A stretch of 64,000 bases of DNA, taken from contig JAPPNN010000029.1 in assembly GCA_028873815.1 (NCBI GenBank), forward strand, positions 41,515-105,514, written 5' to 3'. The translations under genes were made by a program, and so were the position numbers. Shown piece by piece: positions 5,295 to 13,239 of this stretch. Origin of the DNA: Gemmatimonadota bacterium (GTDB lineage Bacteria; Gemmatimonadota; Gemmatimonadetes; Longimicrobiales; Gaopeijiaceae). The notes under the pieces were generated by a model. The model saw only the letters and a program-made list of their open reading frames with translations. It was not told where the DNA came from and did not search any database. Within the stretch, counting starts at the first letter, position 1; the number at the start of each line of letters is the position of its first letter.

Positions 5295-6953
5295 TCAGTA
5301 GGCGGACTGGTGCACCCCCGCGACCGCCCGTCCCGAGGGGTCGAGCGTCTTCGACAGCACCTCGTCCCATGCCAGCGCCTCGGGCGTGGAGCACGCCACG
5401 CTCGGTCCTCCGGGGACACAGTGCGCGGCGGCCGGCAGCGGGAAGTGCGACTCGAAGATCCGACGGTACAGGTACGCTTCCTTGTCGGCGGGCGGGTTGT
5501 GCGGGAAGCGGAAGGGGGCGCTGGCCATCTTGCGGTCGCTCACACTCTTCTCCGCGTAGTCCTTCAGCGAGTCGATCCAGGAATACCCCACGCCGTCTGA
5601 AAACTGCTCCTTCTGGCGCCAGGTGACCTCGGCCGGCAAGTAGTCGCTGAACGCTTCCCGGAGGATGCGCTTCTCGATTCCGCCGCCGGCCATCTTGCCC
5701 GCTGGATCGATCGACATGGCCACGTCCAGGAATTCCTTGTCGAGGAACGGGACGCGCGCCTCGATTCCCCACGCGGCCATGGCCTTGTTGGCACGCAGAC
5801 AGTCGTACTGGTGCAGCCGGTCGATCTTGCGAACGGTCTCCTCGTGGAAGGAGCGGGGGTCGGGCGCGCGGTGGAAGTACAGGTAACCGCCGAACACCTC
5901 GTCGGCCCCCTCGCCGGATAGCACCATCTTGATCCCCAGGGTCCGGATGCGCCGAGCCATCAGGTACATAGGGGTGGCGGCGCGCACCGTCGTCACGTCA
6001 TAGGTCTCCAGGTGATGAATGACGTCGGACAGCGCGTCCAGCCCGTCCTGCACGGTGAAGTGGAACTCGTGGTGCACGGTGCCGATGTGATCGGCCACGA
6101 CCCTGGCGGCGGCCAGGTCGGGAGATCCCTCCAGGCCGATACAGAACGAATGGAGCCGGGGCCACCACGCCTCGCTGCGGTCGTCATCCTCGATCCGGCG
6201 TCGCGAAAAGCGCTGCGCCACCGCGGACACGATGGAGGAGTCCAGTCCTCCGGACAGGAGCACGCCGTAGGGAACGTCGGACATGAGCTGCCGGTGCACG
6301 GCCGCCTCGAGCGCCTCGCGGATGCGTGACGGGTCGGGGTCCTCCGTTGCGGCGCTGAAGTTCCGCCAGGCCCGCGTGTAGTAGGGTCGCGGCGTGCCCT
6401 CCGCAGAGTCGAGAAGGTGTCCCGGCGGGAACTCGGTGACCGTGCGGCAGACCGGCGTAAGGGCTTTCATCTCGGACGCGACGTAGAACCGTCCGTCGTC
6501 ATCATGCCCGGTGTACAGCGGCACGATGCCGAGGTGGTCGCGCGCCACGAGGTATCGGTCCTGCTCCAGGTCGTATAGCACAAAGGCGAAGATCCCGTTC
6601 AGACGATCCAGGAAGTCGGCGCCTTCTTCGGCGTACAGCGCCAGAATGACCTCGCAGTCGCTTCGGGTGAGGAAGCGGTACGGGGTGCGGAGTTCGGACT
6701 CGAGCTGGCGGTGATTGTAGATCTCGCCGTTGACGGCCAGCACGTGGGTGCCGTCCGCGTTCTCCAGGGGCTGGGCACCGTGCTCCACATCCACGATTGC
6801 GAGGCGGTTGTGGGCCAGAACGGCGCGCTCGTGCGTGAATACGCCGGACCAGTCGGGCCCGCGATGCCGCTGCAGCTTCGACAGCGTCAGGACCCGCTCA
6901 CGCGGTGGTGGATCGGTAGGGTCGAATCCCAGGATGGCGAGGACGGAGCACAT
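5295..6953 (-). CDS. asnB: Asparagine synthase (glutamine-hydrolysing)
   Basis: A 552-residue cytoplasmic AsnB. Cys2 immediately after the initiator Met is the N-terminal nucleophile of the class II glutaminase domain (to about residue 200, with R-H-R-G-P-D and N-G-E-I-Y-N motifs). The C-terminal synthetase domain has the pyrophosphate loop S-G-G-L-D-S-S and the S-G-E-G-A-D-E motif. It transfers glutamine amide nitrogen to aspartate using ATP. The ATG at 6953 is fixed by the need for Cys at position 2. It is divergent from the UGA-containing peroxiredoxin-like gene, with only 72 bases between the two starts; the two need not be functionally linked. Confidence 0.95.
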   Translation of the reverse strand: MCSVLAILGFDPTDPPPRERVLTLSKLQRHRGPDWSGVFTHERAVLAHNRLAIVDVEHGAQPLENADGTHVLAVNGEIYNHRQLESELRTPYRFLTRSDCEVILALYAEEGADFLDRLNGIFAFVLYDLEQDRYLVARDHLGIVPLYTGHDDDGRFYVASEMKALTPVCRTVTEFPPGHLLDSAEGTPRPYYTRAWRNFSAATEDPDPSRIREALEAAVHRQLMSDVPYGVLLSGGLDSSIVSAVAQRFSRRRIEDDDRSEAWWPRLHSFCIGLEGSPDLAAARVVADHIGTVHHEFHFTVQDGLDALSDVIHHLETYDVTTVRAATPMYLMARRIRTLGIKMVLSGEGADEVFGGYLYFHRAPDPRSFHEETVRKIDRLHQYDCLRANKAMAAWGIEARVPFLDKEFLDVAMSIDPAGKMAGGGIEKRILREAFSDYLPAEVTWRQKEQFSDGVGYSWIDSLKDYAEKSVSDRKMASAPFRFPHNPPADKEAYLYRRIFESHFPLPAAAHCVPGGPSVACSTPEALAWDEVLSKTLDPSGRAVAGVHQSAY

Positions 6954-7025
6954 GCGATTAAGATAGGTCTCCCGGAACCGGGGGTGTACCCGGTGGAATC
7001 CGCCACTCTGCAACGGATCACGAAC

Positions 7026-7652
7026 ATGCTCCCATCCATTCGATTTGCGGCCGGCGCGCAATTCGTCGCGTTGCCGATGATGCTGGCCCTGCTTGCGACC
7101 GCTTCCGCGGCCCGTGCACAGGACCTGGGTCCCGCTGACGGTCACGACATGCCGGGCACCGACATCGAGCGCGTGGCTGTCGGGGACGAAGCGCCGCTGT
7201 TCACGCTCGAATCCTTCGACCGCGGCCCGGTGACGCTCTCGGACTTCCGGGGGGACAAGAACGTCGTGCTCGTCTTCTACCGGGGCCACTGGTGACCCTA
7301 CTGCGCCAGTCAGCTCGTGGAGCTGAGAGCCCTTTTACCCGAAGACCTCAGGGACGAGACCGAAATCGTGACGGTGTCGGTGGACGACCAGGAGGGGATG
7401 CAGCTGATGATCGACCGTGTGGCCGCCGAAGACGGCATGGCTCCCGACTTCATCATGCTCTCCGACCCGGACCACGCCGTGATCGACCGCTACGGCCTGT
7501 TCAATGAGAATGCGCCTCCGAACCGGCCTCTGCCGCATCCCGCCACCTACGTGATCGACAAGGAGGGTGTCGTGCGGTACCGCTTCGTGGAGGTGGACTA
7601 CCGGGTGCGGCCCACCAACGAGGACATTCTGGAGGTCCTGAAGACGCTGTAG
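7026..7652 (+). CDS. Exported peroxiredoxin-like protein with in-frame TGA (predicted selenocysteine)
   Basis: A 208-codon frame interrupted only by TGA at 7293-7295 (codon 90). Upstream are a signal peptide (ends near A-R-A-Q) and the first half of an AhpC/TSA-type redoxin domain. The frame reads F-Y-R-G-H-W, then TGA, then P-Y-C. In the AhpC/TSA_2-like family this segment is Y-R-G-x-W-C-P-Y-C, so TGA sits exactly on the first catalytic cysteine. After it the frame continues with well-conserved redoxin sequence (V-S-V-D-D near residue 120, H-P-A-T-Y-V-I-D-K-x-G near 180) to a normal stop. That preservation argues for readthrough as selenocysteine rather than a pseudogene. A hairpin follows at the right distance (7310-7326). 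Alternative start: ATG at 7077. Role: peroxide or thiol redox chemistry in the periplasm. Confidence 0.78.
7310..7326 (+). promoter_or_regulatory. SECIS-like hairpin downstream of UGA
   Basis: A 7-bp perfect stem (TCAGCTC with GAGCTGA) closes a GTG loop. The loop starts 21 bases after the TGA codon. Bacterial SECIS elements are short stem-loops just downstream of the UGA, with a G near the start of the apical loop roughly 16-37 bases away; this one fits. The stem is short and could arise by chance in G+C-rich coding DNA, so it is supporting evidence only. Confidence 0.5.
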
Positions 7653-7923: not shown

Positions 7924-8523
7924 ATGCCTGAAAGCCACTGCGAAGCGCACAGCCGACCGAAAACACCCTCGGAGCCCCGCGTCGCAAGGCGCCGCCGCTC
8001 GGCGATCCTGACGCTGGTGCTGGTGCCGGCGACGATCGTACTCGCGGCGCTCGCGGTCTCCGACCTGCCCCGCATGGGGCGAATGGCGGCACGCGTCGAC
8101 CTGGCCAGGCTGGATGCGGAGTTCCTAGGAGATGACGCGGTCGTCTTCCAGTCCGCGCTGAACGACTGCGGGCCTGCCGCGCTGGCGAACATGATGCGCG
8201 TGGTCGGCGTTGTCGCGCCCTCCACCGACTCGCTCGCGGTGCTCGCGGACATGGGGCCGAGGGGCACGACCGCCCGCGGACTGATTCGCGCCGCCGGCCG
8301 ATTCGGCCTGCCGCTTGAGCTGGTACGCCTCACGCCGGCAGACCTGTACCAGGCACGCACACCGTTCATCGCGTGGGTGAACCGCAATCACTTCGTGACC
8401 GTCATCGGAAGGTCCCCGTCCGGCCGTCTGACCGTGGTGGATCCGACGGCGGGCCGCTACTCGATCAGCGAAGAAGCATTCCAGGAAATCTGGTCCGGCG
8501 AGTCGATCGTGCTCGCCGGATAG
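7924..8523 (+). CDS. Membrane-anchored C39-type leader peptidase
   Basis: A 199-residue protein with one N-terminal transmembrane helix (about 27-45) preceded by an Arg-rich stretch, which predicts the catalytic domain outside the cytoplasm. The rest is a C39 cysteine peptidase domain: Gln76 (oxyanion hole), Cys82 in D-C-G-P-A, His156 in N-H-F-V and Asp173 in V-D-P. C39 domains cut bacteriocin leaders after double-glycine type sites, and are normally fused to an ABC exporter; here it stands alone. I chose the ATG at 7924 (GGAG 8 bases upstream); a TTG at 7885 is possible. It begins the cluster, 65 bases before the first precursor gene, and is the obvious candidate to mature the six peptides. 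Confidence 0.88.
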   Translation: MPESHCEAHSRPKTPSEPRVARRRRSAILTLVLVPATIVLAALAVSDLPRMGRMAARVDLARLDAEFLGDDAVVFQSALNDCGPAALANMMRVVGVVAPSTDSLAVLADMGPRGTTARGLIRAAGRFGLPLELVRLTPADLYQARTPFIAWVNRNHFVTVIGRSPSGRLTVVDPTAGRYSISEEAFQEIWSGESIVLAG

Positions 8524-8588
8524 TTCCTGGGTCCGGCCGCGGCGAGGGGCGTTGCGGCTTCGTTTACAATCGCTGAAGGAGGAGGATG

Positions 8589-8873
8589 ATGAGGAAAGGA
8601 CGAATGCGGGCAACCGTGTACGCGCTCTGTCTTGCGCTGCTCGCGGGGCAGGGAGCCCAACTGACCGCGGGACTACCGGTCGCCGTCTTCGAGAACGGGG
8701 TACCGACCGCAGTTGAGGGCCGCGGATGGCTAACGTTCAGTATCTGCGTCGGTTGCATAGCGTCGGGCATGTTCCTGGCTGCTACAGGCGGAATCGTGGC
8801 AGCGGCGAGTGTACCCGGTTCGACCATGGCGGCCGCCGGGTGTGTAGCCGCGTGTTACGACGCAATCTTTTGA
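8589..8873 (+). CDS. Precursor peptide 1 of Cx2C/Cx3C family
   Basis: 94 residues; the second of two adjacent ATGs (8586, 8589) best fits the AAGGAGG SD at 8576-8582. An N-terminal signal-like hydrophobic helix (about 8-28) is followed by a short polar spacer and the junction V-E-G-R-G. The predicted core then has Cys-Val-Gly-Cys, 28 small or hydrophobic residues including G-G and A-A-A runs, and Cys-Val-Ala-Ala-Cys, ending Y-D-A-I-F. The junction matches the [VI]-[VE]-G-[GRQ] pattern shared by all six peptides. Likely product: a secreted hydrophobic peptide of about 49 residues with two disulfides. No database family is recognised by me. Confidence 0.8.
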   Translation: MRKGRMRATVYALCLALLAGQGAQLTAGLPVAVFENGVPTAVEGRGWLTFSICVGCIASGMFLAATGGIVAAASVPGSTMAAAGCVAACYDAIF

Positions 8874-8890
8874 TTGACAAGGAGATCCGG

Positions 8891-9226
8891 ATGAATAAGA
8901 CGTTGCACCAACAGATGCACGTCGGCATGGCGATGATGCTGTTCCTTGCCCTTATGAATGGCCTGGTGAACCCGTTTGCGGTCGGAGGGCGGACGGATAC
9001 GACCGCTGAAATCACGATAGCGGAGTCCCTTGGCCGGGGGGCAGTTGAGCGAGACGTGATCGCTGTCGAAGGAGGGCAGGCGCTTGCAAGGACTGGCTGC
9101 GTTCTATGCGTTGGAGGCATTCTCTTTGCTGGCGGAGCAAGCATCGTCGGTTTGATAGCAGTGGCGGCGGCGGCTCCCTTTGCCACGGGTGCGTGTGCCT
9201 TCGTTTGTACGCTGGGATATGGATGA
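8891..9226 (+). CDS. Precursor peptide 2 of Cx2C/Cx3C family
   Basis: 111 residues from the ATG at 8891, with an AAGGAG SD 6 bases upstream. The leader is the longest of the six: a hydrophobic helix (about 11-31), then an acidic, Thr-rich spacer, then V-E-G-G followed by Q-A-L. The core has Cys-Val-Leu-Cys, 28 residues dominated by Gly, Ala, Ile and Val with several G-x3-G-like spacings, and Cys-Ala-Phe-Val-Cys, ending L-G-Y-G. This is the clearest double-glycine junction with an acidic residue just before it. It starts 17 bases after the stop of peptide 1. Confidence 0.8.
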   Translation: MNKTLHQQMHVGMAMMLFLALMNGLVNPFAVGGRTDTTAEITIAESLGRGAVERDVIAVEGGQALARTGCVLCVGGILFAGGASIVGLIAVAAAAPFATGACAFVCTLGYG

Positions 9227-9254
9227 TCATCGATTGCGGTGACAAGAGAGGACA

Positions 9255-9551
9255 ATGGCGCTAATGAAGAACAAGAGTGTTGCAACTGTGATACGAGCCT
9301 TGACCGTGGTTGCGCTGGCGAACGCCACAAACGCGAGCAGCCGGCGGGCGGAAGTCGTCGTTGACGAAGCCGGAACGGTCGAGGCAAGCATGGTGTTGGA
9401 GGAGGCGGTCGTAGGCGGACAGAACACGGGGCTCAACATTGCGTGTTGGGGATGCATCAGTGTCACTGTGGTTCTGGTGGCAATGGCGGGGGTTGGAGGT
9501 TTCCTGAGCATCGCTTGCGGCTTTGCGTGTGGAAAACTTGCCTTGGCGTAA
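9255..9551 (+). CDS. Precursor peptide 3 of Cx2C/Cx3C family
   Basis: 98 residues from the ATG at 9255, behind a GAGAGG SD. The hydrophobic N-terminal helix is short (about 8-24) and is followed by an acidic spacer with V-V-V-D-E and L-E-E, then the junction V-V-G-G before Q-N-T-G. The core has Cys-Trp-Gly-Cys, 20 residues (Val/Ala/Gly-rich) and Cys-Gly-Phe-Ala-Cys, ending G-K-L-A-L-A. The acidic/hydrophobic alternation before V-V-G-G resembles classic double-glycine leaders (L-x3-E-L-x-x-I-x-G-G) more than any other member. It lies 28 bases after peptide 2. Confidence 0.8.
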   Translation: MALMKNKSVATVIRALTVVALANATNASSRRAEVVVDEAGTVEASMVLEEAVVGGQNTGLNIACWGCISVTVVLVAMAGVGGFLSIACGFACGKLALA

Positions 9552-9568
9552 ACAAAAAGGAGGAGATT

Positions 9569-9862
9569 ATGACTAAGCTACGGAGTAAAGGGCTCACGGG
9601 AGCCGTGTTGGTCGCGGTATTGATGGCAGGGTCGCTGCGAGGGCTAGAGGCCGGTGCTGACAACGCCGCGGCGTGGGAAACGCGTTCAGCGGTGGCGGAG
9701 TCGAGTGTGATTGAGGGACAGGGATGGTGGAAGTTCGCTGCATGTATCGGGTGTGTGGCGGGAGCAGTGGTGGGCTCGGTCGTGTCTGCGGGAACTGGAG
9801 CAGCTGCCGCTGCCATCGGCTGTGGAATCTTGTGCGGCATGGCAGCTGCTGATGACTTCTAG
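9569..9862 (+). CDS. Precursor peptide 4 of Cx2C/Cx3C family
   Basis: 97 residues from the ATG at 9569, with a strong AAGGAGGAG SD at 9558-9566. A hydrophobic helix (about 8-24) is followed by an Ala/Glu spacer and the junction V-I-E-G-Q-G. The core starts with W-W-K-F, has Cys-Ile-Gly-Cys, 22 Gly/Ala/Val residues including a run of five Ala, and Cys-Gly-Ile-Leu-Cys, ending A-D-D-F. It pairs with peptide 1: both have E-G-[QR]-G-W at the junction instead of G-G-Q, suggesting two subgroups within the array. It starts 17 bases after peptide 3. Confidence 0.8.
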   Translation: MTKLRSKGLTGAVLVAVLMAGSLRGLEAGADNAAAWETRSAVAESSVIEGQGWWKFAACIGCVAGAVVGSVVSAGTGAAAAAIGCGILCGMAAADDF

Positions 9863-9884
9863 GACCTGGTTATGGAGGTGTACC

Positions 9885-10178
9885 ATGAGGCGGGCAATGA
9901 ACACGTGGTCCCGCGGCTCTGTCGTCGCGCTAATGTTGGGCATTGGCATCGCTTCGGGTCTGCAGCCCAAGAGTAACATGGCACAAAGGAACGCAGTTGC
10001 CCCGACCGACATGATTGAGCAAGCAGTTGTGGTCGGTGGCCAGGGGCTGAACGGCACGTTGGCGTGCAAGCTGTGTTGGTTGGCTGTCAGGCGTCTGGTC
10101 TTTTCGGCGCCAGGAGGCGCAGTGATTGGCGGTTTAATCTGTACGGCCGCCTGTTCAACGCATATCAGTCCCTTGTAG
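9885..10178 (+). CDS. Precursor peptide 5 of Cx2C/Cx3C family
   Basis: 97 residues from the ATG at 9885, with a GGAGGTG SD at 9874-9880. A hydrophobic helix (about 11-26) is followed by a polar spacer, then I-E-Q-A-V-V-V-G-G and Q-G-L-N-G. The core has Cys-Lys-Leu-Cys, 21 residues that include two Arg and an A-P-G-G turn, and Cys-Thr-Ala-Ala-Cys, ending I-S-P-L. The central P-G-G suggests a helix-turn-helix shape, with the two cysteine pairs bracing the ends. It starts 22 bases after peptide 4. Confidence 0.8.
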   Translation: MRRAMNTWSRGSVVALMLGIGIASGLQPKSNMAQRNAVAPTDMIEQAVVVGGQGLNGTLACKLCWLAVRRLVFSAPGGAVIGGLICTAACSTHISPL

Positions 10179-10197
10179 AGAAAGGCAGAAGAAAGTG

Positions 10198-10497
10198 ATG
10201 AGGATGAACAGCGGGATTGTTCGAGGTGTCGTAGTGGCGGCTGCCGTGTTGACGCTTGGGACCGCAGGAACATCGAGCACAGGATATGGTGTCGGAGCGG
10301 ACACAGGCCAGGTTGGAGCGTCGGCGTCGGCGCAGGTGACGGATCAGGTTGTGGGAGGTCAGCACGCGGGCGTGGTGGCGCTCGTAGCTGCATTGCGTTT
10401 GTGGTGCGTGCAATGCGTCTTCGGCGCTGCTTCGACCGGGCAGGTCGACCTCGTCGAGTTGGCCCAGTGCGCCATCTTCTGCGACATCGCGTTCTAG
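10198..10497 (+). CDS. Precursor peptide 6 of Cx2C/Cx3C family
   Basis: 99 residues from the ATG at 10198; a GTG at 10195 is an alternative, and the SD (GAGAAAGG, 10178-10185) is weaker than in the other members. A hydrophobic helix (about 7-26) is followed by a Gly/Ser/Ala spacer, then V-T-D-Q-V-V-G-G and Q-H-A-G. The core has Cys-Val-Gln-Cys, 17 residues and Cys-Ala-Ile-Phe-Cys, ending D-I-A-F. This is the most divergent core: the inter-pair stretch is shortest and contains Asp and Glu. It may be a less hydrophobic partner peptide or an immunity/signal form. It is the last peptide before the hairpin at 10513. Confidence 0.78.
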   Translation: MRMNSGIVRGVVVAAAVLTLGTAGTSSTGYGVGADTGQVGASASAQVTDQVVGGQHAGVVALVAALRLWCVQCVFGAASTGQVDLVELAQCAIFCDIAF

Positions 10498-10512
10498 TCG
10501 GACGGAAACAGA

Positions 10513-10547
10513 GGGGGACCCGGGCCGCTGCTTTGTCCGGGTCCCCC
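10513..10547 (+). terminator. GC-rich hairpin after the peptide array, possible attenuator
   Basis: A perfect 11-bp inverted repeat (GGGGGACCCGG, 13-base loop, CCGGGTCCCCC) follows the last peptide gene by 15 bases and precedes the thioredoxin-like gene. No T-run follows, so it may act as a partial terminator or 3'-end mRNA stabiliser. Either would yield more peptide transcript than transporter transcript. Confidence 0.65.
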
Positions 10548-10559
10548 GATGGATGAATC

Positions 10560-11108
10560 ATGGAGGTATCGAAACCATCGATGCGTGAAAAGAGCGTGGC
10601 GTTGGCGGTGGCGGCTTGTGTTGCGGGTATTGCGATTGTGCCGTTGGTCTGGATGGGCAGAACCGGGGATGGTCCGGATGCCCCGCCCTGGGTGCTACCG
10701 CCCGTCTCAGGTTGGCTGGGGGAGTCGGAAACGTGGACATACCGGGCGAACGAGACGGGGTCGACGGCCTTGATCTATGTCGATCGCAGTTGTGTTCACT
10801 GCAAGGCGGAACTGGAGTTGTGGGAGTCGGTGCAGGAAGATCACGCGAACGGGGTAGCGGTCTGGGTGGTGGCCTCCCCGAGGTCGGTCATGGAGAGAGC
10901 GCGGTGGGTTCCCCCATCGCTTCGTGAACGGACGGTACATGACCGCGACGGAAGTGTGGGCCGGGCCCTGGGGGTCAGCGCGGTGCCCGCGACGTTCTGG
11001 ATCGACGAGACCGATACGGTCCGGATCCTACGTGTCGGACGCAGCAACAGGAAAATGCTTGCCGACAACATCGCCGCAATGCGCGGAAAGGGAGAATCGA
11101 AGTCATGA
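10560..11108 (+). CDS. Thioredoxin/TlpA-like membrane-anchored oxidoreductase
   Basis: 182 residues if started at the ATG at 10560; an ATG at 10581 (after GGAGGT at 10562-10567) is equally plausible. An N-terminal transmembrane segment (about 11-32) anchors a thioredoxin-like domain on the periplasmic side. The active site is Cys78-Val-His-Cys81, and the cis-Pro is Pro143 in V-P-A-T-F. The C-V-H-C dipeptide resembles TlpA/DsbE-type proteins. Its position directly after six peptides, each with two cysteine pairs, suggests it makes, reduces or isomerises their disulfides. Its stop overlaps the next gene's start (ATGA). Confidence 0.85.
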   Translation: MEVSKPSMREKSVALAVAACVAGIAIVPLVWMGRTGDGPDAPPWVLPPVSGWLGESETWTYRANETGSTALIYVDRSCVHCKAELELWESVQEDHANGVAVWVVASPRSVMERARWVPPSLRERTVHDRDGSVGRALGVSAVPATFWIDETDTVRILRVGRSNRKMLADNIAAMRGKGESKS

Positions 11109-11785
11109 GTGGACGAGATGGAGCGCGTGGGGGCGTGCGACGGATTCTGGCAGCGCTGCGGCACTTTCTGAACATGCTCGTGCCCAGTCTGGATGACATT
11201 CGCGAGTATCAACCCATCGCACCCCCGCTGGTCATGGGATGGGTGTTCTCGCTGGTAGCCGCGTTGTCGCTCCGGCCGTTGGTATTAAGCGCAATGGCAA
11301 CCCAGGGACCGGAGATTGCGCAGGGGACGCTTCTGGTGCTGGGTGTAGTGGCAGTGATTGCGCCGCTGATTCACCTGCTCAAGGCGGGGCTTCTGGCAGC
11401 CTTGGGATGGGCTGTGCTGGTGCTTGCGAACTCGAAGCGCCGCATCCGTCCGATGCTTTCGGTACTCCTGTACGGGGAAGCGATTCTGGCGGCGCAGGGA
11501 GTGCTCCAGGCGCTCTATCTGCACCTGGTGACGGGCGGAAGCCCGACGTCACCTGCTGATCTGCAGTCCAATTTGGGGTTGGCAGCCTTCGTACCTGCCA
11601 CGAGCCCGGGTCTGCTGGCGGTCGCCCAGAGTTTCTCGTTGGGCCATTTCCTGTGGTTCGGATTCCTCGTGATTGCACTGCGCCGGTGCGATGGTCCCGA
11701 GCGTCGACCGTCCCTCGGACTCGCACTGTTCTTCTGGGGCGTCATGGTGGCCTTTTCTGCGGCACGCGCATGGGTCACATTGTAA
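11105..11785 (+). CDS. Multi-pass membrane protein, Yip1-like
   Basis: 226 residues, translationally coupled to the thioredoxin-like gene by a 4-base overlap. Five hydrophobic segments are visible (about 42-58, 70-88, 95-112, 120-140 and two near the C-terminus). The arrangement and the P-M-L-S-V-L-L-Y-G segment resemble Yip1/YIF1 domain proteins (PF04893), which occur beside ABC genes in many bacteria with unclear roles. In this cluster it is a candidate immunity protein or transporter accessory subunit. No catalytic motif is seen. Function is inferred from position only. Confidence 0.6.
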   Translation: MSGRDGARGGVRRILAALRHFLNMLVPSLDDIREYQPIAPPLVMGWVFSLVAALSLRPLVLSAMATQGPEIAQGTLLVLGVVAVIAPLIHLLKAGLLAALGWAVLVLANSKRRIRPMLSVLLYGEAILAAQGVLQALYLHLVTGGSPTSPADLQSNLGLAAFVPATSPGLLAVAQSFSLGHFLWFGFLVIALRRCDGPERRPSLGLALFFWGVMVAFSAARAWVTL

Positions 11786-11828
11786 TGCGGGCGAGAGAGA
11801 GGGTGGGCGGGCGGCGTTGGGGGGGCAA

Positions 11829-12545
11829 ATGGCGGGAGTGAGGCTGCGGGGATTCAGCGTCCGGTACTCCAACTTCTTCCTGGAACCGATGGATCTGACC
11901 GTCGATCCGGGAGAACGCGTTGCGTTGGTTGGAGCGAACGGGGCCGGGAAGAGCACGACGCTCAAGGCGATTGCGGGTCGGCTGCGGGACTACGAGGGCA
12001 GGGTGGAACTCTGCGGAGACGACATCCGACCCCAGTTGCCGGAGATCAGGACGCGTGTTGGGTTTCTTCCCGAAAAGCTGCTCGGATTCGGTTGGATGAC
12101 CATCGATGAGCACCTGCGGTTCCTCTCGACCTTCTTCCCCACCTGGGACCGCGACTACGAGCAAGAGCTCCTGACTCGCCTGGATCTTCCGGGGGCGTCG
12201 AAGGTGGGCACGCTTTCCAGGGGGATGTCGGTCAAGCTGTCGCTGGTAACTGCCGAGGCCCACCGGCCACCGGTCCTCATCCTCGACGAGCCCACCACGG
12301 CCATCGATCCGGTCATGCGCCGAGAGCTGCTTGGGATCATTGGTGATTGCGCACCCCGGGGCGGCGATCGCCTCGTCCTCTTTTCCAGCCATATCCTCGA
12401 AGATGTGGAGGTCATCGCCGAGCGGGTCGTCCTGATGAGGGTGGGACAGATCCTTGAGGACGTGACCACGAAGGAGCTTCAGGAACGCGATCCCGGTTCG
12501 CCTCTCTCCCAAGTCCTCCTTTCAACATTGGAGTCCGATGACTAG
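11829..12545 (+). CDS. ABC transporter ATP-binding protein
   Basis: 238 residues. Walker A G-A-N-G-A-G-K-S-T is at 35-43, the signature is the variant L-S-R-G-M, Walker B ends L-I-L-D-E-P-T, and the H-loop is in S-S-H-I-L. This is the domain type of ABC-2 exporters and bacteriocin self-immunity systems (CcmA/BcrA-like). The start at the ATG at 11829 gives a normal N-terminus; the upstream G-run is a weak SD. It overlaps the permease by 8 bases. It has no C39 domain, so leader cleavage and transport are split between separate proteins here. Confidence 0.93.
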   Translation: MAGVRLRGFSVRYSNFFLEPMDLTVDPGERVALVGANGAGKSTTLKAIAGRLRDYEGRVELCGDDIRPQLPEIRTRVGFLPEKLLGFGWMTIDEHLRFLSTFFPTWDRDYEQELLTRLDLPGASKVGTLSRGMSVKLSLVTAEAHRPPVLILDEPTTAIDPVMRRELLGIIGDCAPRGGDRLVLFSSHILEDVEVIAERVVLMRVGQILEDVTTKELQERDPGSPLSQVLLSTLESDD

Positions 12546-13239
12546 TCAAGCCCTTTGGACGCTGGTGGGACTTGAGTTTCTACGGCCCCGCCGGACCTTC
12601 GCGCGTGGTTGGCTTTTCCTCCTGGCAATCGTGATCCTTGTGGTTGCGATAGGGTCTGACACGCAAGCGGCACTAGCGTTGACCTCGGTCGGTGCCGCGT
12701 TTGCCACTCAAATCCCCGCTAATACCCTCCATGACAGGCTTACAGGCAGTCTGGAAGCGGTTACCACACTCCCCGTGAGCGCCGGGACGCTCGCAGCAGC
12801 CCGCCTTGCGGCAGTTGGCCTTATGACGGCGATGGGCGCGGTTCCGATCGCTGTCGCCGGTGGCATTGCAGGCCCCGCCATGCTGGAGGACTCCAGCCTG
12901 ATCCACATAGTGATGGTCTTCTTTGTGGCGGCCTGGATCTTGCTCTCGGTGTTGTCGGCGGTGTCCCTCGCGGTCCTGCTCCGCTTCAGGACCCAGTCGA
13001 TAGTGTCCCATGGCCTGATTGTCGGGTTTGTGACACTAGTGGGCGTGGGCTACCTCTACGATCGGCTCTTCGGGAGCCCATTGCGGTTGATCCGGGCCGT
13101 GATGACCAGCGATCACACCCTGGCGATCGCCATTGGCAGCGCCTTGGTTGGCTCGGCAGTGGTCCTGACGGCCTCATTCCTGCTCACCCGCAGGGGATTC
13201 GAGATCTACCAGCCGGAACCGGACGCGATGGACTGGTAG
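12538..13239 (+). CDS. ABC-2-type permease, bacteriocin export or immunity candidate
   Basis: 233 residues with six predicted membrane helices and short loops, overlapping the ATPase gene by 8 bases. Length and helix pattern fit ABC-2/CcmB-like permeases. With one ATPase and one permease this would form a homodimeric exporter or a LanFEG-like immunity pump that expels hydrophobic peptides from the membrane. If precursors cross the inner membrane by Sec, as their signal-like N-termini suggest, immunity is the more likely role. It is the last gene in the cluster before a change to metabolic genes. Confidence 0.82.
   Translation: MTSQALWTLVGLEFLRPRRTFARGWLFLLAIVILVVAIGSDTQAALALTSVGAAFATQIPANTLHDRLTGSLEAVTTLPVSAGTLAAARLAAVGLMTAMGAVPIAVAGGIAGPAMLEDSSLIHIVMVFFVAAWILLSVLSAVSLAVLLRFRTQSIVSHGLIVGFVTLVGVGYLYDRLFGSPLRLIRAVMTSDHTLAIAIGSALVGSAVVLTASFLLTRRGFEIYQPEPDAMDW

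What the first reader, a model, noticed from the sequence alone, without database searches (positions are those of the whole stretch)
7924..13239. A self-contained, apparently undescribed peptide system: C39 peptidase, six linked precursors, redox protein and ABC transporter
Sequence: one strand holds a C39 peptidase with an intact Cys-His-Asp set, six adjacent small genes with the same architecture, a CVHC thioredoxin-fold protein, a Yip1-like protein and an ABC ATPase-permease pair. Known: C39 domains cut double-glycine bacteriocin leaders, and ABC-2 pairs commonly give immunity or export. Inferred: these parts form one bacteriocin or signalling-peptide pathway, which lacks the usual modifying enzymes (LanM, rSAM, YcaO) and differs from colicin-V-type systems because peptidase and exporter are separate. 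I know no described family with this composition.
Basis: partly seen in the sequence, partly recalled or inferred. Interest (0 to 1): 0.95.

Follow-up and report, generated by a model that had tools for sequence, protein, structure and literature searches.

The report
Export-first, trim-outside paired peptide system
A gene set found in the same order in 18 Gemmatimonadota loci encodes pairs of small peptides with four-cysteine cores next to a C39 cutting enzyme, a redox protein and a pump; the peptides are predicted to be exported first and then likely trimmed and disulfide-bonded outside the inner membrane, and would most probably serve as weapons against rival bacteria.

Summary
Window 7924-13239 is one same-strand block: C39 peptidase, six small precursors, CVHC redoxin, Yip1-like protein, ABC ATPase, ABC-2 permease. 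It is not unique: 18 loci across Gemmatimonadota carry the whole set in that order, each with an adjacent pair of precursors (pep1-type, pep2-type; in one locus pep1 keeps only its core). In the genus the block lies between two genes that are 158-343 bp apart in six genomes without it, so it is a discrete unit. Of 51 catalogued precursors 50 have a hydrophobic, signal-like N-terminus and 48 a V-x-G-x-(G/Q) site before a hydrophobic CxxC...CxxxC core. The C39 forms its own clade apart from exporter-sized C39s, keeps its catalytic residues and usually has an N-terminal anchor predicted to place it outside. A Fidelibacterota locus repeats the logic: C39, signal-peptide leaders conserved up to V-x-G-(G/S), different cores. 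Best reading: an inverted double-glycine pathway, export first and C39 trimming afterwards, making disulfide-locked two-peptide bacteriocins, with a Pmt-like pump and Yip1-like protein for immunity or release. Topology, cleavage, disulfides and killing are inferred. Precedent for an extracytoplasmic C39: FapD, substrate undetermined in the papers consulted.

The parts
7924..8523 (+). C39 cysteine peptidase with N-terminal membrane anchor (residues about 28-44); catalytic domain outside the membrane by prediction
   Evidence: PF03412 E 1e-21; catalytic residues invariant in 40 homologues; anchor with charge +5 on the N-side, +1 on the C-side; in a clade of 17 block enzymes, support 97/94
8586..8873 (+). 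precursor pep1 (pep1-type, seen in all 18 loci; predicted cut AVEGR/GW)
   Evidence: in L010 only the core is in frame
8891..9226 (+). precursor pep2 (pep2-type, seen in all 18 loci; predicted cut AVEGG/QA)
9264..9551 (+). precursor pep3 (alternative start 9255)
9569..9862 (+). precursor pep4: among 13 orthologues mean identity 89% in residues 1-28, 64% in the pro-stretch, 46% in the core
9885..10178 (+). precursor pep5
10198..10497 (+). precursor pep6
10513..10547 (+). RNA hairpin without a T-run between the precursors and the downstream genes, a candidate attenuator or stabiliser
   Evidence: -32.4 kcal/mol, z -2.7; similar in L004 and L005
10560..11108 (+). redoxin/thioredoxin-fold protein with N-terminal hydrophobic segment, CVHC active site
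   Evidence: PF08534 E 5.4e-6; CxxC in 18 of 18 loci
11105..11785 (+). Yip1-superfamily, YknW-like membrane protein
   Evidence: YknW_fam matched by 6 of 11 orthologues at E up to 0.1, best 6e-12, window copy 0.0025; Yip1 by 4 of 11
11829..12545 (+). ABC ATPase; closest NCBIfam model is PmtA
   Evidence: 130 bits, cut-off 350; best of 44 matches to that model in the genome
12538..13239 (+). ABC-2 type permease

Best explanation
The block encodes linked peptide precursors with four-cysteine cores that are predicted to be exported through Sec and then likely cut at a V-x-G-x site by a C39 peptidase predicted to be anchored outside the inner membrane, giving peptides that would probably be disulfide-locked and act in pairs as bacteriocins. 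Steps: (1) the precursors have a hydrophobic, mostly basic-headed N-terminus, an acidic-leaning pro-stretch and a hydrophobic core (shown in sequence); export through Sec is predicted. (2) The C39 protein keeps its catalytic set (shown); its topology, and its cleavage of the precursors right after G-x in V-x-G-x-(G/Q), are inferred. (3) The core's CxxC and CxxxC are likely oxidised into a helical hairpin, with the CxxC redoxin as oxidant, isomerase or reductant (inferred). (4) The Pmt-like ATPase and ABC-2 permease with the Yip1/YknW-like protein would clear these membrane-seeking peptides from the producer's membrane, as immunity and perhaps release (inferred by resemblance). (5) pep1-type and pep2-type are the constant pair and extra precursors are optional (shown); that both are needed together is inferred.
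For: Same gene order with both precursor types in 18 loci. Empty site: flanking genes 158-343 bp apart in six same-genus genomes, 5132-6309 bp apart with the block inside in six others. 51 precursors (picked by the CxxC...CxxxC pattern): no further Cys in the core in 51 of 51, none between residue 31 and the core, hydrophobic N-terminus in 50 of 51; site motif 48 of 51 against a shuffled mean of 9.7. pep4: residues 1-28 89% identical against 46% in the core, core lower in 78 of 78 pairs, the pattern expected of diversifying bacteriocins. C39: catalytic Cys, His and Asp in 17 of 17 (the Asp of L107 by eye), N-terminal anchor in 16 of 17; the 17 form one clade, 97/94, apart from 25 exporter-sized rows, 21 of them distinct. 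Independent repeat in Fidelibacterota locus L016: C39 followed by precursors with a classical signal-peptide end (..VNA), a 45-residue leader 71-87% identical among three relatives and reaching to YDVxG(G/S), and different cores. Precedent: FapD is a Sec-exported periplasmic C39 that needs its active-site Cys (PMC5557850, passages).
Against: No cleavage, disulfide, export or killing has been measured. No signal-peptide predictor was available; only hydropathy and charge were computed, with script-chosen starts and no positive control set. The residue before the predicted cut is R, T, Q or another residue in 24 of 48 correctly placed sites, while canonical C39 enzymes cut after GG, sometimes GA. 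Diversifying cores are not general: pep2 and pep3 have cores more conserved than the N-terminus (82 against 77%, 85 against 65%), pep1 and pep6 are near even. L013's C39 as called shows no anchor and L011's charge pattern points the other way. ATPase, permease and Yip1 matches are below family cut-offs. The pep1 structure model is of low confidence (pLDDT 60). The window block holds no evident outer-membrane exit protein. L019, the other Fidelibacterota relative, showed no such peptide, and one of L016's two precursors has a frame that ends early.
Confidence: 0.55

Rival explanations
1. Same maturation route, but the peptides are signals (quorum-sensing or development) and not weapons.
For: Small processed peptides with a linked pump are also typical of signalling (recalled); some precursors (pep2, pep3) have conserved cores.
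Against: The eleven genes of the window block include no receptor kinase or regulator; the other loci were not annotated gene by gene. Several paralogous precursors per locus in part of the loci and the variable pep4 cores fit antagonism better; cores are long and hydrophobic for a signal.
Confidence: 0.15
2. A Fap-like surface-material system: the anchored C39 matures hydrophobic subunits that stay in or on the envelope.
For: FapD, a periplasmic C39, serves amyloid secretion; one of 40 C39 homologues matches the FapD model weakly.
Against: The window block has no gene left over for FapA, B, C, E or F (they were not searched for as such); precursors carry a fixed set of core cysteines; an ABC ATPase and permease are present in all 18 loci.
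Confidence: 0.12
3. A split version of the usual peptidase-exporter: the C39 cuts in the cytosol and the ABC pair exports the core.
For: C39, ATPase and permease are all in the block; all 40 C39 homologues resemble the NHLM exporter's peptidase domain; L011's charge pattern and L013's missing anchor.
Against: The positive-inside rule puts the C39 outside in 15 of the 16 proteins with an anchor; N-termini are signal-like in 50 of 51 precursors; the block C39s are a clade apart from exporter-sized ones.
Confidence: 0.1

Closest known systems
FapD, periplasmic C39 protease of the Pseudomonas functional amyloid system
   Same: Stand-alone C39 with a Sec signal peptide, active in the periplasm (PMC5557850, passages)
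   Different: Substrate undetermined in the two papers whose passages I saw; serves an amyloid system; the FapD model matches 1 of 40 homologues, weakly
Peptidase-containing ABC exporters (colicin V, NHLP, PCAT1, ComA)
   Same: C39 catalytic domain (PCAT1 4ry2 E 7e-17, ComA peptidase 3k8u E 4e-16); glycine-type site with hydrophobic P4
   Different: Peptidase not fused to an exporter; N-termini are signal-like; P1 is often not G, A or S
SDP toxin of Bacillus subtilis with SdpI and YknWXYZ protection
   Same: Secreted hydrophobic disulfide-containing peptide toxin (recalled); a YknW-like protein next to an ABC transporter (YknWXYZ as SDP efflux pump from the PMC4887032 search listing)
   Different: C39 is used; no membrane-fusion protein in the block; the YknW match is far below its cut-off
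PmtABCD phenol-soluble modulin exporter
   Different: Below the PmtA cut-off of 350 bits; PSMs are leaderless (recalled); one ATPase-permease pair only
Two-peptide (class IIb) bacteriocins
   Same: Two adjacent short hydrophobic precursors that recur together (18 of 18 loci)
   Different: Four conserved core cysteines; signal-like N-terminus; joint activity untested

Membership tests
Peptidase-containing ABC exporter systems (PCAT/NHLP/colicin V) | C39 domain fused to the exporter | tested here: not met
   199-aa stand-alone protein; own clade against 25 exporter-sized rows, 21 distinct
Peptidase-containing ABC exporter systems (PCAT/NHLP/colicin V) | Intact C39 catalytic Cys-His-Asp | tested here: met
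Peptidase-containing ABC exporter systems (PCAT/NHLP/colicin V) | Canonical double-glycine leader | tested here: inconclusive
   no NCBIfam model, leader models included as far as recalled, fits the six peptides, and N-termini are hydrophobic in 50 of 51, but no known leaders were run as controls
FapD / Fap system | Match over the FapD model's cut-off | tested here: not met
   1 of 40 homologues, E 1.5e-4; not among the three families listed for the window protein
FapD / Fap system | Extracytoplasmic C39 | tested here: inconclusive
   anchor and charge pattern only
YknW family (SDP protection) | Score over the NF052650 cut-off of 110 bits | tested here: not met
   17 bits for the window protein; 6 of 11 orthologues match at E up to 0.1, best 6e-12
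Pmt phenol-soluble modulin exporter | ATPase over the PmtA cut-off of 350 bits | tested here: not met
   130 bits
Pmt phenol-soluble modulin exporter | Pmt-type permease fold | tested here: inconclusive
Class IIb two-peptide bacteriocins | Two adjacent precursor genes | tested here: met
   18 of 18 loci, with only the core of pep1 in frame in L010
Class IIb two-peptide bacteriocins | Full killing activity only with both peptides | not testable with these tools
   needs peptides and indicator strains

The most novel reading that the evidence does not exclude
An inverted double-glycine pathway: peptides go out through Sec first and are then cut at a V-x-G-x site by a membrane-anchored C39 and oxidised outside, yielding a new family of disulfide-locked two-peptide bacteriocins in Gemmatimonadota, with a simpler sister system in Fidelibacterota. 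It would supply natural substrates for an extracytoplasmic C39 protease.
Probability: 0.5. Interest if true: 0.82.

Novelty: new variant of a known kind. Interest (0 to 1): 0.72.

Why it matters
Double-glycine peptides are usually trimmed by a C39 domain on the cytosolic face of an exporter (PMC5557850, passage). A block that joins an apparently extracytoplasmic C39 with its own candidate substrates makes the question that the FapD papers left open (what does a periplasmic C39 cut, and where?) directly testable, and points to an uncharted class of probably disulfide-bonded peptides. The peptides match no family model in Pfam or NCBIfam, so mining keyed on known leaders may miss them.

Tried and rejected
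Considered and rejected: (1) membership in PCAT/NHLP, Fap, YknW or Pmt families, each by a tested feature not met (see Membership tests). (2) Lasso or other modified peptides because of the upstream asparagine-synthase-like gene (5295-7082, minus strand; name by eye): it was found beside the block in 6 of the 15 loci compared and not in L008, L010, L012 and L014, which hold at least 9 kb upstream; some others hold too little upstream DNA to tell. (3) A general leader-conserved, core-variable rule: true for pep4 only. (4) AlphaFold2 of pep1 gave pLDDT 60, helices 4-23, 46-67 and 79-94; not used for a fold search. (5) Hairpin after the last precursor: clear in window, L004 and L005, weaker in L006, not in L007 and L009, where hand-set coordinates may have missed the gap. 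(6) L019, the other near relative in Fidelibacterota, showed no matching peptide in the stretch held. (7) Other stand-alone C39s outside the clade (L068-L071, L074, L075, L022, L030, L032) lacked the set. (8) PLSDB plasmids: 41 records, all under 60% identity, none covering 80% of the query. (9) Two plasmid regions fetched as possible leader controls were not used, so no positive control for leader hydropathy was run.

Limits: loci were found by C39 similarity, so clusters lacking C39 would be missed. One search scored only the 7986 candidates sharing most words; one search scored 7 first-look candidates per genome. The pep1-type/pep2-type labels of loci outside alignments A5 and A6 are by eye. 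Precursors were picked by the CxxC...CxxxC pattern. Dropped before counts: L010 pep1 (core only) and L010's two CxxC-only peptides are not in the 51; the script placed one site wrongly, inside the signal of the L105 pep1, hence 48 and not 49 sites; L108 is not among the 17 C39s because its C39 is cut by the contig start. Tree: of 63 loci given, four (L053, L055, L070, L074) were left out because no active-site Cys pattern was found; truncated loci (L003, L027, L108, L109), L075 and duplicates were not given; 59 rows, 52 different. Some row starts in alignment A3 are off by a residue.
Full report
WHAT IS THERE. The window lies in a genome assembly of 4.29 Mb in 87 contigs (G000); its closest named relative, L003, is a Gemmatimonadetes MAG with a C39 95% identical. 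Between 7924 and 13239 lie eleven genes on the + strand: C39 peptidase (7924-8523), six precursors (8586-8873, 8891-9226, 9264-9551, 9569-9862, 9885-10178, 10198-10497), redoxin (10560-11108), Yip1-like (11105-11785), ABC ATPase (11829-12545), permease (12538-13239). Gaps are 17-62 nt and two pairs overlap, as expected of an operon. Pfam and NCBIfam name the C39, the redoxin and the ATPase, hint at Yip1/YknW and ABC-2 for the membrane proteins, and give the six peptides no credible match.

IT RECURS. A genome-contig scan with the C39 alignment gave 32 loci. Of these, L004-L015 hold the complete set in the order C39, precursors, redoxin, Yip1-like, ATPase, permease (the L013 permease by profile in L106, the same contig). 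L003 is the same block cut by the contig end; L027 is cut inside the C39. Searches of unnamed relatives added five complete loci, L065, L067, L105, L107 and L108 (the C39 of the last cut by the contig start). With the window that makes 18. In one search, 15 of 148 relatives had a C39 match at E 1e-24 or better. In a phylum-wide sample 26 of 395 genomes matched at E 1e-20 or better (7 candidates scored per genome): 17 have a frame of 209-293 aa, 2 are fragments at contig ends, and 7 are exporter-sized. Within the genus 7 of 23 genomes have the block's C39.

IT IS A UNIT. In the genus the block sits between an AhpC-like gene and an M28-type peptidase gene (names by eye). Both neighbours are in 23 of 23 genomes. 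They share a contig in 19: 158-343 bp apart in six genomes without the block, 5132-6309 bp apart in six with it, and 3.1-15.5 kb apart with other DNA in seven (for G005 the second-best AhpC match was used). In three of the seven (G002, G016, G014) the slot holds a 106-aa ORF whose first 57 residues match the C39 N-terminus of relatives (43-49 of 57 identical) and then diverge, a likely relic of loss. In seven distant loci (L011-L015, L065, L067) neither neighbour was found in the stretch held (L105, L107 and L108 not tested), so the block is not tied to this site.

THE PRECURSORS. 51 precursors were catalogued in the 18 loci. 50 of 51 have an 11-residue stretch of mean hydropathy at least 1.8 near the N-terminus, and 45 of 51 at least two Lys or Arg before or at its start. 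The core is CxxC, 16-32 residues, CxxxC; no further Cys occurs in it in 51 of 51, nor between residue 31 and the core. The V-x-G-x-(G/Q) site lies mostly 9-10 residues before the first Cys and was found in 48 of 51 against a shuffled mean of 9.7. At these 48 sites P4 is V in 40, P1 is G, A or S in 24 and R, T, Q or others in 24 (P4, P2 and P1' were constrained by the pattern). Mature cores would be 39-54 residues, rich in Ala, Gly, Leu, Val and Ile, with little charge; pro-stretches lean acidic. pep1-type and pep2-type genes are neighbours in all 18 loci, extras raise the number to six; in L010 the pep1 core is intact but no signal-like N-terminus is in frame. pep4 orthologues keep residues 1-28 (89%) and vary the core (46%), in 78 of 78 pairs; pep1 (83 and 78%) and pep6 (70 and 69%) are near even; pep2 (77 and 82%) and pep3 (65 and 85%) go the other way.

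A SECOND PHYLUM. In locus L016 (Candidatus Neomarinimicrobiota, Fidelibacterota) a C39 with a hydrophobic N-terminus (by eye) is directly followed by a precursor whose frame ends early after the site; 1.2 kb on, beyond another ORF, comes an intact one, then a membrane protein with a weak ABC-2 match (PF12730, E 0.018, below cut-off) at the contig end. These two and a third relative on a short contig without context (P0147-P0149) share a 45-residue leader (32-39 of 45 identical) with a classical signal-peptide end, VNA, reaching to YDVxG(G/S); the cores give no BLAST match to each other at E up to 10, though one of the three is only 13 residues long. This is the best support for both halves of the model: signal peptide first, V-x-G-x boundary second. 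L019, the other Fidelibacterota locus, has no such peptide in the stretch held.

HOW IT LIKELY WORKS. Export through Sec, trimming outside by the anchored C39, oxidation helped by the redoxin, then action on the membrane of rivals by a pair of hydrophobic hairpins, with the ABC pair and the Yip1/YknW-like protein keeping the producer clean. Only the sequence features are shown; every step is inferred. The analogies are FapD for a periplasmic C39 (PMC5557850 and PMC6173800, passages), YknWXYZ for protection against SDP (PMC4887032, search listing), and Pmt for export of PSM peptides (PMC8535901, passages). None of these is a family membership.

NOVELTY. The listings of searches joining C39 with Gemmatimonadota, bacteriocin, thioredoxin, stand-alone, Sec or periplasm terms showed nothing describing this set; the FapD papers came, after the FapD model appeared. 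The library is open access only and two listings were partial, so absence from print is not shown.

Noticed in passing
window 7008-7652: The AhpC/redoxin-like gene just upstream has an in-frame TGA at FYRGHW-TGA-PYC; 8 of 8 relatives compared have TGA at the same place and the genome has a tRNA-Sec match of 79.7 bits against a cut-off of 47. Likely a UxxC selenoprotein; no SECIS search was made.
   Followed up: partly
L110, L111, L116 (G002, G016, G014): The same slot holds a C39 N-terminal relic and a roughly 344-aa protein; in L110, the one read out, also several other small signal-bearing cysteine peptides: perhaps another peptide system in the same hotspot.
   Followed up: no
L112, L113, L114, L115: In four other genomes the slot holds an ABC ATPase and a roughly 360-aa protein that looks by eye like a membrane-fusion protein.
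   Followed up: no
window 10513-10547: Strong hairpin between the last precursor and the redoxin gene, alike in L004 and L005.
   Followed up: partly
window 8500-11500: G+C falls to about 59% and GC skew rises to about 0.3 over the precursor genes.
   Followed up: no
L001 (G000:C38:36473-36850): The genome has a second C39, in an 806-aa frame of peptidase-exporter size.
   Followed up: no
L010 11222-11855: Two further small signal-bearing peptides with CxxC pairs but no CxxxC lie in the precursor region.
   Followed up: no
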